Source of the DNA: Bedellia somnulentella
Lineage: Eukaryota; Arthropoda; Insecta; Lepidoptera; Bedelliidae
Direction of reading: 5' to 3'
DNA: 64,000 nucleotides
Assembly: GCA_963576735.1 (NCBI GenBank)
Contig: OY755176.1
Location: 20,034,125-20,098,124, forward strand
Positions within the stretch are counted from its first letter, which is position 1; every line of letters begins with the position of its first letter. Made by a program: the position numbers and the translations under genes. The notes beneath the pieces are model-generated. The model saw nothing but the letters and a program-made list of their open reading frames with translations. It was not told the origin of the DNA and ran no database searches. Shown piece after piece: positions 23,389-57,805 of this stretch.

Positions 23389-23470
23389 CCCCCACATGGT
23401 GCAGCCTTGTCGTGGCGTGGGGGCTCAGTAGCCTCGGGCAATCCAGTCCGGGGTGAAGCCAATGGCATCG
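23389..23470 (+). ncRNA. HDV-like ribozyme fold at the 5' end of E1
   Basis: P1 is CCCCCAC (23389-23395) with GTGGGGG. Two bases later P2 opens (GGTGC) and closes with GCATC at 23465-23469, which needs one G-U pair. P3 is GCC/GGC around the loop TTGTCGT. P4 is CCTCGG with CCGGGG. The joining segment before P2' is CCAA. This order and nesting (P1, P2, P3, P3', P1', P4, P4', P2') is the double pseudoknot of hepatitis-delta-like ribozymes, which are known at the 5' ends of R2 and other LINEs. Cleavage would free the element's first C from upstream TTAGG transcript. Confidence 0.75.
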
Positions 23471-23830
23471 AGGTGGGTCCGCTTCTCTCCTCTGCTTCCA
23501 GAGGTAGCAGTAAGCGGACGAGAAGCCATTGCACTTCATGTGCTTGGCTAATCGAGTCGTCTTTCCCGCATCGGGTTTATTTAGTGGAGTTTAGCCCCGG
23601 CGTCTGTCTCACATTGAGCGGCCTGGTGGTTAGGGGGCGGCAGTTTCGTTACGTCACTGTCGGCCAACCCGTAAACTTACTTGTAAGAACGGGGGCTCAG
23701 GCCACTGAGGTCTGAGCCGCGAGGAAGAAAACCTCTGTAAAAAATTACCCCAATCCTAAGGTTGGCGTGCCGAGAGGATGAATGGCTGGAGGGTCTCCAG
23801 TCCCTAGCGCGGGTGATAGGGAGAACTCGT

Positions 23831-23980
23831 TAGTAGGCCGAGTATAAAATTGCCTACTAATTTTAAATGATGAGTGTTAATAGAAAACAAATACCCCAGG
23901 AGGGTACCACCGGCTCCACCGGTGGAGAATCCCTCCCTGCATCGAAAGATGTAGGCTGCCCTTCGTATTCTGGGGGGGGC
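23831..23980 (+). promoter_or_regulatory. Covarying hairpins around the ORF1 start, E1
   Basis: Four helices. H0: TAGTAGGC 23831-23838 with GCCTACTA 23852-23859, just before the ATG. HA: GGAGGG 23899-23904 with CCCTCC 23931-23936, enclosing CCACCGG 23907-23913 with CCGGTGG 23919-23925. HB: CTGCATC 23937-23943 with GATGTAG 23948-23954, loop GAAA. HC: GCCC 23958-23961 with GGGC 23977-23980. Other copies change both sides of these stems together. Confidence 0.7.
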
Positions 23981-25819
23981 ACCACCCATCCACCTAGATC
24001 AATAGATCTAGAGACTCGCTTGAGTCAAAATCGCTACGCTGTACTTGACAGTCGTCCAAGTTCAGCTCAAGGTGCTAACAGGGAACTCGATGATGGAGAA
24101 ATGAGTGATTCTTCAATTCGTTCCTCTGCTTCTATTTTGTCTTCCGTCTCGGCGGTGTCAATGGCATCACGGAAGCGAAAAAGTGGCTCTCGGATGAGCA
24201 CTATCTCATCCCAAAGGAGAAAGGTTGTGTCAAAGGCTGGTGAGTTTGCTGAACCTTTTCCAGCCGATGATGTTTCAGCTGATGACGTGGACTGGTCAGT
24301 GGACTTGAAAGCGCAACCTACTGCCGAAGTGGGTGCCAGAGCATTGGAAGCGGCAACAAAAGTTATAAATGTGGCCGATAAGTCAAGGAACTTGAAGGGA
24401 ACTTTTGTGCGGGACCTTAAAGCAGCGGCACGGCTTTTCGAAGCGGCTACTGCTGAACTGACGCAACGGTCGTCTAACCACTTTAACGAAGAGCGCTTGC
24501 AGCAGGAAAACTTTGAGCTTAGAGCCCGAGTAGCTGCCCTAGAGGAAAAAATAGGGCGTATGACTGAGCACGAAAACTCTCCAAGCAGAGTGAGTCCAAG
24601 GTCCTCACAACCAAAAGCTGCTGCTCCAAGCCCGATAGCTTTAGAGGCAATAGAGGCGCTCATAACAGAAAAGCTGAATGCTTTCATGAATGAGCTGTTT
24701 CCACAGAGAGCTATAAGGCCTCCTTTAGGCAGGCAAAATGCACCAAATAAAGAGAAGGCAGTGGAAATAAATAAGCCCACAAAATCTCAAAGAGCGCGCA
24801 AGCGGAGAACACCCATGCAGCCCTCCGTTGCTGAACTACCAGCGGTGCCGAGGCTTAATGTTCCTGCACAAAAACCGCAATCGGAATCATGGGCAACAGT
24901 AGCTGGCCGGCGGGCCAAAAAGACTCAAGGGAATACGAAACAGCCAAAGTCTGCGTCTCAGACTAAAGCTGTTTCAAAAAATAAAGGTAATAAGCGAAAG
25001 CCTCCAAAACCTCCGAAAAACGCTGTTATTACTGTCACCGTTCCAGGGGGTTCCAACACTTCATACGCTGAGGTCATGGACACGGCTAAGCAGCGGATCA
25101 ATTTGAAGGATCTCGGGATAACCGCTGTTCGCCAAAAGCTGACAGCCACTGGAGGGCTCCTTCTGGAAGTACCCGGCCCGGAAAGTGTCACTAAGGCAGA
25201 TGCGCTAGCAACGCGTATGACAGCTGCTTTAGCTGAATTCAACGTCCATATAGCCCGCCCCATCAAATGTGGTGAAATGAGGGTGATGGACTTAGACGAA
25301 TCTATGACTGCTGGGCAAATAGCTCATGCCATAGTGGAATTGAGTGGTTGTTCTCCGAATGACATAAAGGTGGGAGAAATTAATAAAGGAAGCAACAGAC
25401 TTGGTTCTGTATGGGTCAAATGCCCTTTAAAAGTGGTTCATACATTAGCGAAAGCTAAAGTGTTGCAGGTAGGATGGGTACTTACGCGTGTAGAAGTATT
25501 GCCCACTCGAACATTGCAATGTTATAAATGCTTGGAGCCTGGTCACGTAAGAATCCAATGCAAAAGCACCGTTGATCGTGGGGACCGGTGCTATAAGTGC
25601 GGTGAGAGTGGCCACAAAGCACGTCAATGCGTAGCCGTTGCTGCGAATTGTCCGCTATGCACCGACCTAGGTAGGCAATCTGACCACCGTCTGGGGACAA
25701 AAAAGTGTCAACCGATGTCAGATAAAGGCAAGAGGAAAGGCCAGCTGGAGAGTTTGAAGACCACTCTGATGCCGGCTGCAGTGAGCACATGCTCGCAGGG
25801 AGGAGCTATGGATGTTTAA
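23867..25819 (+). CDS. E1 ORF1, SART-type gag-like protein
   Basis: 650 residues, start MMSVNRKQIPQEGTTG. N-terminal YSGGG motif near residue 38. Ser-rich linker, coiled-coil region near 205-230, then a Lys/Pro-rich stretch, a conserved ESWATVAGRRAK motif near 342, and three zinc knuckles: CYKCLEPGHVRIQC (about 552), CYKCGESGHKARQC (about 574) and CPLC...HRLGTKKC (about 596). Family role: binds element RNA and carries it to telomeres. Unlike the other four copies it has no recognisable AT-hook. It ends in MDV with TAA at 25817-25819, without the TAATG overlap seen in E3 and E7. Confidence 0.85.
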   Translation: MMSVNRKQIPQEGTTGSTGGESLPASKDVGCPSYSGGGTTHPPRSIDLETRLSQNRYAVLDSRPSSAQGANRELDDGEMSDSSIRSSASILSSVSAVSMASRKRKSGSRMSTISSQRRKVVSKAGEFAEPFPADDVSADDVDWSVDLKAQPTAEVGARALEAATKVINVADKSRNLKGTFVRDLKAAARLFEAATAELTQRSSNHFNEERLQQENFELRARVAALEEKIGRMTEHENSPSRVSPRSSQPKAAAPSPIALEAIEALITEKLNAFMNELFPQRAIRPPLGRQNAPNKEKAVEINKPTKSQRARKRRTPMQPSVAELPAVPRLNVPAQKPQSESWATVAGRRAKKTQGNTKQPKSASQTKAVSKNKGNKRKPPKPPKNAVITVTVPGGSNTSYAEVMDTAKQRINLKDLGITAVRQKLTATGGLLLEVPGPESVTKADALATRMTAALAEFNVHIARPIKCGEMRVMDLDESMTAGQIAHAIVELSGCSPNDIKVGEINKGSNRLGSVWVKCPLKVVHTLAKAKVLQVGWVLTRVEVLPTRTLQCYKCLEPGHVRIQCKSTVDRGDRCYKCGESGHKARQCVAVAANCPLCTDLGRQSDHRLGTKKCQPMSDKGKRKGQLESLKTTLMPAAVSTCSQGGAMDV

Positions 25820-57319: not shown

Positions 57320-57693
57320 CGCTGCGGTCCCGATGAGCCCTGCTAGTGTGGTGATGATGATAAGCCACCTAGCGGGGCACTGAGGCAGGGGGTGCCCAGA
57401 GGGAGGGCTCTTGGGCTCCCATCCAATCCTGCCTCGAGGAGGCCGGAAGCTCAGGGTGGCCTTGAGCTTCCGTCGCAAAAGATGGCGTGAAAGGGGGCAC
57501 ATAAGATCAGCCCCCGAGACGTTCGCCGAAAGGCGTGGTGTGTGGGGCACGCGGACGTCATGCCTCTGGCGATTCCCGTATGCCCCGCAACGAAGCACCT
57601 GAGATGGCCACCGAGGGGTTTTAGCCGGTATGAGTCCGGCATATCCCCGCCGCACCCTTCAAGTGGCGGGGAATCCATGAGGATTTCCCCTCG
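57320..57693 (+). other. E7 3' UTR
   Basis: 374 bases ending 'gaggatttcccctcg' before the A tract. Carries three helices with sequence different from E3-E6 but the same order. Confidence 0.7.
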
Positions 57694-57713
57694 AAAAAAA
57701 AAAAAAAAAAAAA

Positions 57714-57726
57714 GGTTAGGTTAGGT
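57714..57726 (+). repeat. TTAGG spacer between E7 and E8
   Basis: Only 13 bp (GGTTAGGTTAGGT), the shortest spacer of the array; like the one before E7 it ends in a single T. Confidence 0.95.
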
Positions 57727-57805
57727 CCCCCACACGGTGCAGCCTTGTCGTGGCGTGGGGGCTCAGTAGCCCCGGGCTGGTCACCCGGGGTGAAGCCAAT
57801 GCACC
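57727..57805 (+). ncRNA. HDV-like ribozyme fold at the 5' end of E8
   Basis: P2 GGTGCA with TGCACC (57800-57805); P4 CCCCGG/CCGGGG; joining segment CCAA. The fold is fully Watson-Crick in P1, P2 and P4. Confidence 0.75.

What the first reader, a model, noticed from the sequence alone, without database searches (positions are those of the whole stretch)
23389..57805. HDV-like self-cleaving ribozyme fold at the 5' end of all eight telomeric elements
Seen: every element opens with a 7-bp P1 (CCCCCAC/GTGGGGG), two linker bases, a P2 that closes about 80 nt later, P3 GCC/GGC with loop TTGTCGT, P4 of six pairs, and a CNAA joining segment. This is the nested double-pseudoknot order of hepatitis-delta-type ribozymes. 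P2 is GGTGCA/TGCACC in E2, E5, E8 but GGTACA/TGTACC in E4, E6, and E3 has the G-U intermediate; P4 also varies in pairs. Known: such ribozymes sit at the 5' ends of R2 and several other LINEs, and of trypanosome L1Tc and its non-autonomous partner. Inference: co-transcripts reading through TTAGG are trimmed exactly at the first base of each element. I do not know whether this has been reported for SART.
Basis: partly seen in the sequence, partly recalled or inferred. Interest (0 to 1): 0.9.

Follow-up and report, generated by a model that had tools for sequence, protein, structure and literature searches.

The report
Predicted self-cutting RNA on telomere elements
Eight jumping elements in one insect chromosome end, three of them short and without long protein genes, begin with about 81 bases that are predicted to fold into a self-cutting RNA of a type already reported for this element family; the short telomere elements that share it are the less expected part.

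Summary
The fold is there, with corrections. All eight elements open with invariant P1, P3 and a CNAA segment; canonical P2 closes in 6 of 8, while E1 and E7 carry an extra base in P2'. The pattern sits at element base 1; 2 of 200,000 shuffled 81-nt segments do so. With short input, 3 of 4 copies scanned match Rfam HDV models end to end, far below cut-offs. Ribozyme covariation is not above shuffles. Cleavage is untested. HDV-like ribozymes in SART are already reported (PMC11620745 passage, citing Ruminski 2011), so the headline is not new. Added here: short elements E2 and E5 share with long SART copies mainly this 5' module and the last ~100 nt, where 13 of 25 predicted pairs show compensatory changes and no shuffle does as well. 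E8 is a third, chimeric short element. E1, a distinct SART lineage, has an E7-type 5' leader. The ribozyme looks like an exchangeable 5' module of telomeric LINEs and non-autonomous partners. An internal DPE promoter remains a compatible rival.

The parts
23389..23470 (+). E1 5' module: P1, P3, P4, CCAA; P2' TGGCATCG with one extra base (imperfect P2)
29391..29470 (+). E2 (short element) HDV-like ribozyme, P2 GGTGCA/TGCACC; RF02682 1-74 aligned over exactly this stretch, sub-threshold
30231..30311 (+). E3 HDV-like ribozyme, P2 with one G-U
36405..36485 (+). E4 HDV-like ribozyme, P2 GGTACA/TGTACC; RF02682 1-74 aligned over exactly this stretch, sub-threshold
44331..44410 (+). E5 (short element) HDV-like ribozyme
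45197..45277 (+). E6 HDV-like ribozyme, P2 GGTACA/TGTACC
51569..51650 (+). E7 5' module, P2' TGGCATCG as in E1; no HDV match in Rfam; preceded by T plus two extra C
57727..57806 (+). E8 (short element) HDV-like ribozyme; RF00094 1-89 (57725-57808) and RF02682 1-74 end to end, sub-threshold
29391..30206 (+). E2, short non-autonomous telomeric element, 816 nt with poly(A)
44331..45127 (+). E5, short non-autonomous telomeric element, 797 nt
57727..58377 (+). E8, short chimeric element, 651 nt: first ~130 nt like long elements, nt 161-651 98% to E2
23389..29336 (+). E1, full-size element, ORF2 of a distinct SART lineage behind an E7-like 5' leader
30231..36380 (+). E3, full-size SART; ORF2 appears interrupted (two ORFs, 634 and 373 aa)
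36405..44241 (+). E4, full-size SART, ORF2 open (40701-43826), ~1.7 kb insertion in ORF1
45197..51508 (+). E6, SART with open ORF1 (45687-47942) and ORF2 (to 51073)
51569..57713 (+). E7, SART with open ORF1 (52002-54197, zinc knuckle) and ORF2 (54197-57319, endonuclease and RT)
29227..29314 (+). E1 3' structured module; 34.7-bit match to Rfam R2_retro_el (cut-off 38)
30089..30180 (+). E2 3' structured module
36259..36351 (+). E3 3' structured module
44128..44219 (+). E4 3' structured module
45028..45118 (+). E5 3' structured module
51375..51468 (+). E6 3' structured module
57602..57693 (+). E7 3' structured module; top but weak Rfam match R2_retro_el, 17.4 bits
58266..58357 (+). E8 3' structured module
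58380..63999 (+). perfect TTAGG array running to the window end, probably the chromosome-terminal side

Best explanation
The first ~81 nt of these telomeric SART-type LINEs and of their short non-autonomous partners encode an HDV-like self-cleaving ribozyme. When RNA polymerase reads from the subtelomere or from an upstream element through TTAGG repeats into an element, the nascent RNA folds and cuts itself immediately 5' of the first C, giving an element RNA with a defined 5' end. That RNA, recognised through its structured 3' module and poly(A) by the SART ORF2 protein, is copied into TT^AGG targets. Short elements keep only the RNA modules needed in cis, the 5' ribozyme and the 3' structure, and borrow the proteins. 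Shown here: position, topology, shared modules, the covarying 3' structure, the target junctions. Inferred: catalysis, co-transcription, trans-mobilisation.
For: Topology at base 1 in 6 of 8 copies, 2 of 200,000 shuffled segments. RF02682 is the only Rfam match at E<=10 for E2 (29391-29470) and the best of two for E4 (36405-36485), over the full model and the exact predicted stretch; in E8 RF00094 and RF02682 are two of seven matches, both end to end. E2/E5 against E3, E4, E6: identity 0.88-0.91 in the module, 0.32-0.36 in the next 100 columns. Invariant L3 and CNAA in 8 of 8. One P2 pair changes on both sides. The same class is reported in telomere-specific SART. R2 SIDEs carry working ribozymes and are described as needing only the ribozyme and a 3' end (passages). 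No AATAAA/ATTAAA in the last 1.7 kb of the five long elements and none in the three short ones, so read-through between elements is plausible.
Against: Rfam at gathering cut-offs: 0 matches; no HDV family at E<=10 on 35 kb. The HDV matches score 13.0-15.6 bits, E 0.67-4.4, against cut-offs of 44-50; the control stretch, though without HDV match, held a chance match at E 0.087, so only the exact end points carry weight, and the copies are related. In E8 the HDV models were not the best-scoring match. Covariation not above shuffles. E1 and E7 have a disrupted P2', and E7 has no HDV match. By inspection P1.1 is at most one pair (G21-C36) if it stacks directly on P1, J1/4 is 8 nt against 0-2 in R2, and base 1 is C where both Rfam consensus sequences have G. 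Minimum-energy folds without pseudoknot contain P1 in E1, E3, E6, E7, a re-paired version in E4, and not in E2, E5, E8; none of 8 folds is notably stable (z -0.2 to -1.9). No external DNA copies were found.
Confidence: 0.77

Rival explanations
1. The conserved 5' ~80 bp is a DNA element: an internal RNA polymerase II promoter that starts transcription at base 1, with a downstream promoter element (CGTG) at +28 to +31. Both long and short elements keep it to be transcribed; the fold is secondary or unused.
For: CGTG at +28 to +31 in 8 of 8. PMC4748587 (passages read) cites B. mori SART1 and TRAS1 as having DPE motifs in their core promoters and says that start sites were mapped in some such elements.
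Against: The stricter motif RGWYV (recalled, from no call) is at +28 in 0 of 8. A promoter does not predict P1/P2/P3 pairing with CNAA at base 1 nor the P2 change on both sides. The two functions are not exclusive: the L1Tc Pr77 stretch is described as both (passages).
Confidence: 0.13
2. Homology by descent only: the module folded and cleaved in an ancestor, but in these copies it is inactive or irrelevant, conserved because the copies are young or homogenised by recombination in the array.
For: Copies are 80-99% alike over the module, covariation is not above shuffles, E1/E7 carry the odd P2', and a leader was exchanged between lineages.
Against: E2/E5 stay 81-91% alike to long elements across the module and drop to about a third directly after it, and ORF2 of E6 and E7 are only 75% identical, so general youth does not explain the module.
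Confidence: 0.1

Closest known systems
HDV-like ribozymes of telomere-specific SART (Ruminski et al. 2011, paper not held and not seen; named in PMC11620745, passage read)
   Same: Same class of ribozyme, same element family, same 5' position.
   Different: Seen here also on short elements and on a lineage with a swapped leader; I could not compare sequences with the 2011 set.
R2 and R2/R1 SIDEs of Drosophila (PMC3414825, passages read)
   Same: Short elements made of a 5' ribozyme and a 3' protein-recognition end, thought to be mobilised in trans.
   Different: Those lie in 28S rDNA; these lie in TTAGG telomeres beside SART, with a middle made partly of repeated GAGG..ACCTC hairpins.
L1Tc/NARTc Pr77 ribozyme-promoter of trypanosomatids (PMC4035085, PMC4748587, passages read)
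   Same: ~77-80 nt 5' module shared by autonomous and non-autonomous elements; ribozyme and DPE-type CGTG in one stretch.
   Different: Different hosts and elements; promoter function untested here.
R2 ribozyme consensus (PMC3774820, sections 13, 15, 16 and passages read)
   Same: P1 of 6-7 bp, P2 of at least 5 bp, catalytic C, L3 core (R2Dm CCUCCUCGUGG in PMC5035012, passage, against CCUUGUCGUGG here).
   Different: J1/4 here 8 nt against 0-2; P1.1 reduced; P1 lies wholly inside the element.

Membership tests
HDV-like ribozyme (structural class) | nested double-pseudoknot order P1-P2-P3-P1'-P4-P2' | tested here: met
   6 of 8 strictly, the other 2 only with a one-base bulge in P2'
HDV-like ribozyme (structural class) | catalytic C in J4/2 followed by N-A-A | tested here: met
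   8 of 8; that this C is catalytic is inferred by homology
HDV-like ribozyme (structural class) | two-pair P1.1 between L3 and the two bases after P1' | tested here: inconclusive
   by inspection one direct pair G21-C36; a two-pair version needs two bases to bulge
HDV-like ribozyme (structural class) | compensatory changes in helices | tested here: inconclusive
   1-2 of 24 pairs with double changes, not above shuffles
HDV-like ribozyme (structural class) | self-cleavage 5' of base 1 | not testable with these tools
   needs in vitro transcription
Rfam RF00094 / RF02682 | score at or above the gathering cut-off (50 / 44 bits) | tested here: not met
   best 14.8 and 15.6 bits; not filed under either Rfam family
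SART telomeric LINE | insertion between T and A of TTAGG, poly(A) at the 3' end | tested here: met
   8 of 8 have an A-tail followed by GGTTAGG; 5' junction TT|C in 6 of 8, E7 and E8 vary; target rule from PMC7265360 (passage)
SART telomeric LINE | ORF1 with zinc knuckle, ORF2 with endonuclease and RT, related to lepidopteran SART | tested here: met
   E6, E7; 53% to a Papilio xuthus RT whose SART label is recalled
SIDE (short internally deleted element) | 5' ribozyme plus 3' recognition end of a LINE, little coding, same target | tested here: met
   E2, E5, E8: modules shared; longest sense ORFs 107, 107 and 86 aa, all listed ORFs of 60 aa or more start GTG or TTG (not searched for homology)
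[quoted passage not shown]
   inferred; SART1Bm proteins act in trans on RNAs with its 3' UTR (PMC7265360, passages)

The most novel reading that the evidence does not exclude
The TTAGG/SART array works as a ribozyme-punctuated polycistron: a telomere-directed read-through RNA is cut at each element's first base, so each ribozyme sets the 5' end of its own element and at the same time the 3' end of its upstream neighbour, which then ends in poly(A) plus UUAGG repeats able to anneal to the nicked CCTAA target strand. Short ribozyme-bearing elements and leader swaps are parasites and by-products of this arrangement.
Probability: 0.2. Interest if true: 0.75.

Novelty: new member of a known kind. 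Interest (0 to 1): 0.42.

Why it matters
The ribozyme on SART is on record, so this is another case of it. The array adds a natural experiment: different bodies (long SART copies of two old lineages, two short elements, a chimera) share the ribozyme module, which suggests that it travels as a unit and is one of the few RNA parts that short elements keep. If active, it ties processing of telomeric read-through RNA to how telomere-inserted LINEs multiply.

Tried and rejected
Rfam on the whole window at gathering scores and on 35 kb at E<=10: no HDV family; only 151-nt inputs gave the sub-threshold matches. These E-values depend on input size. Of 8 copies I scanned 4 that way (E2, E4, E7, E8), plus one control stretch.

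Searches for more copies: one DNA pattern in viral contigs, the ORF2 profile in genome contigs and viral contigs: none. I used 2 of 8 viral and 1 of 2 genome scans. The own-genome search did not complete.

Folding without pseudoknots says little about this topology: E2, E5, E8 prefer a fold with P2 instead of P1. Helix energies summed as separate duplexes are lower than that minimum in E2 and E8 and not in E3, E4, E5, E6 (six copies computed), so they were not used. tRNA-derived origin of the short elements: no tRNA in the window (a bacterial-code scan). One search used a mis-registered structure string and is void; one search replaces it. The tree holds 28 of 181 database proteins, chosen by me, and E1, E4, E6, E7; E3 and the bee record P0121, the top hit, were left out.
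Full report
What is there. The window probably reaches a chromosome end: a 5.6 kb perfect TTAGG array at the right and, left of it, eight elements in one orientation separated by TTAGG stretches. Lengths are 5948, 816, 6150, 7837, 797, 6312, 6145 and 651 nt for E1 to E8. The five long ones are SART-type LINEs: in E6 and E7 a zinc-knuckle ORF1 and an endonuclease-RT ORF2 are open, in E4 ORF2 is open; stop and start overlap as UAAUG in E3 and E7. 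The best-scoring named relative of the E7 ORF2 is from Plutella xylostella (58%), and one from Papilio xuthus has 53%, so the host is probably a moth or butterfly; this is inference. Insertion points fit the T/A rule described for SART1Bm (PMC7265360 passage).

The 5' module. Aligning the first 81-82 nt of all eight shows 7 invariant P1 pairs, 3 invariant P3 pairs with a 7-nt L3, a 7-pair P4 (one A.C in E5) and the CNAA segment. P2 closes without gaps in six. In E1 and E7 P2' has one more base and pairs only with a bulge. A descriptor of the class found exactly those six, each from base 1, and nothing else on either strand of the window. Background: 204 hits in 1000 shuffles of the 35 kb array, 174 shuffles with at least one; at base 1 of shuffled 81-nt segments 2 of 200,000 (five copies, 40,000 each). 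The descriptor was made after the finding, so these figures flatter it somewhat.

Independent support. With 151-nt inputs cmscan aligned RF02682 to E2 29391-29470 (15.2 bits, the only match), E4 36405-36485 (15.6 bits, the better of two) and E8 57727-57806 (13.0 bits), and RF00094 to E8 57725-57808 (14.8 bits), all over the full models. In E8 these are two of seven matches and not the best. E7 gave no HDV match, nor did a control stretch of E8, which however held an unrelated chance match at E 0.087. All HDV scores are far below the curated cut-offs, so the E-values prove nothing; what counts is that full-model matches begin at the element's first base in three copies. The copies are related, so these are not three independent tests.

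Covariation. On eight rows 94.8% of cells pair, one of 24 pairs has a change on both sides, and shuffles do as well. On the six canonical rows 98.6% pair and two of 24 pairs have double changes, again no better than shuffles; slid registers pair 36-51%. The copies are too similar for this test.

Modules. The strongest evidence for function is the edge of homology. E2 and E5 match the five long elements at 81-91% over the module and 30-36% in the next 100 columns; BLAST alignments with E3, E4 and E6 end at nt 82-83, those with E1 and E7 at nt 93-96. They match again over the last ~102-110 nt (92-94% to E3/E4, 80-84% to E6/E7 for E2; for E5 and E7 75% over 197 nt), and a ~33-nt hairpin of the E7 leader recurs in their middle. 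E8 matches long elements to nt ~130 and E2 from nt 161 on (98%), so it is a chimera. The 3' module has 25 predicted pairs, 13 with double changes, 98% of cells paired, 0 of 500 shuffles as good on any of five measures, at most one double change when slid; the structure was predicted from the same alignment, which favours it. So the short elements consist of a 5' ribozyme, a middle with repeated GAGG..ACCTC hairpins and no sense ORF over 107 aa, and a 3' structure of the kind that SART1 proteins recognise in the 3' UTR (PMC7265360 passages). That is the plan of the R2 SIDEs (PMC3414825 passages), here at telomeres.

Leader exchange. The open ORF2 piece of E1 (832 aa) is 46% identical to ORF2 of E7. 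In a tree of 32 rows E1 falls in another clade (99/98 for its five-row group, 100/100 for the eleven-row group) than E4, E6 and E7 (98/96 with a Plutella protein), and each clade holds its own Plutella protein. Yet the first ~350 nt of E1 and E7 are 94-100% alike per 50 columns; after nt ~600 most 50-column blocks lie at 30-46%, a few up to 64%. So E1 received an E7-type 5' leader, ribozyme included, by recombination or template jump.

How it works, and rivals. I think the module is an active or recently active ribozyme that frees element RNA from read-through transcripts; none of the five long elements has AATAAA or ATTAAA in its last 1.7 kb and the short ones have none, which favours read-through. 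An internal promoter is the serious rival: CGTG lies at +28 to +31 in 8 of 8, and SART1 is cited among DPE elements (PMC4748587 passages). In L1Tc both functions share one 77-nt stretch (PMC4035085 passages), so both may hold here.

Known or new. PMC11620745 (passage) lists telomere-specific SART among elements with HDV-like ribozymes, citing Ruminski et al. 2011, which is not held; its abstract I only recall. So the claim itself is known. For short telomeric SART partners with the ribozyme I saw no report in searches (listings of 20 of 24, 15 of 22, 5 of 5 and 10 of 129 papers; open-licence library only), which does not prove absence.

Noticed in passing
29227-29313 and 57600-57699: The SART 3' module resembles the R2 retrotransposon 3' RNA of Rfam (RF00524): 34.7 bits (cut-off 38, E 0.0013) in E1 and the top but weak match (17.4 bits, E 0.06) in E7. 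SART belongs to the R1 group, so a shared or exchanged 3' RNA architecture with R2 would be of interest.
   Followed up: partly
23389-23990 against 51569-52170: E1 carries an E7-like 5' leader in front of a distinct SART body.
   Followed up: yes
26071-28569: The top hit of the E1 ORF2 piece is a bee record (P0121, Megalopta genalis, 54% over 65% of the query), ahead of lepidopteran and unnamed ones: horizontal transfer, contamination or a multi-copy record; not in the tree.
   Followed up: no
34711-34777, 42578-42644, 49822-49888, 56074-56140 (-): Rfam mir-3389 matches antisense to SART ORF2 in four elements at 53-62 bits, below the cut-off of 75; that annotated microRNA family may derive from SART sequence.
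   Followed up: no
about 38277-39949: About 1.7 kb inserted in ORF1 of E4, with a reverse-strand RT fragment (38552-39808, RVT_1) and a TATT run at its left edge: probably a truncated LINE.
   Followed up: partly
29391-30206, 44331-45127, 57727-58377: Short elements hold 4, 5 and 4 copies of a GAGG..ACCTC..AAAAA hairpin motif that was found once in each of the four long elements scanned (E1, E3, E6, E7).
   Followed up: partly
51560-51570 and 57715-57727: 5' junctions of E7 (T plus two extra C) and E8 (one T fewer) differ from the other six, while the first seven element bases stay constant.
   Followed up: partly
1592-4573 (-) and 4826-5680 (-): Another LINE in the subtelomere: a 993-aa ORF with RT and a 284-aa ORF with a PHD finger.
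   Followed up: no
11396-12163 (+): A 255-aa ORF with a LINE-type endonuclease domain, probably a LINE fragment.
   Followed up: no
P0035 and P0116 (database proteins): SART-type ORF2 proteins are filed under Piscirickettsia salmonis and Listeria welshimeri, probably insect DNA in bacterial assemblies.
   Followed up: no
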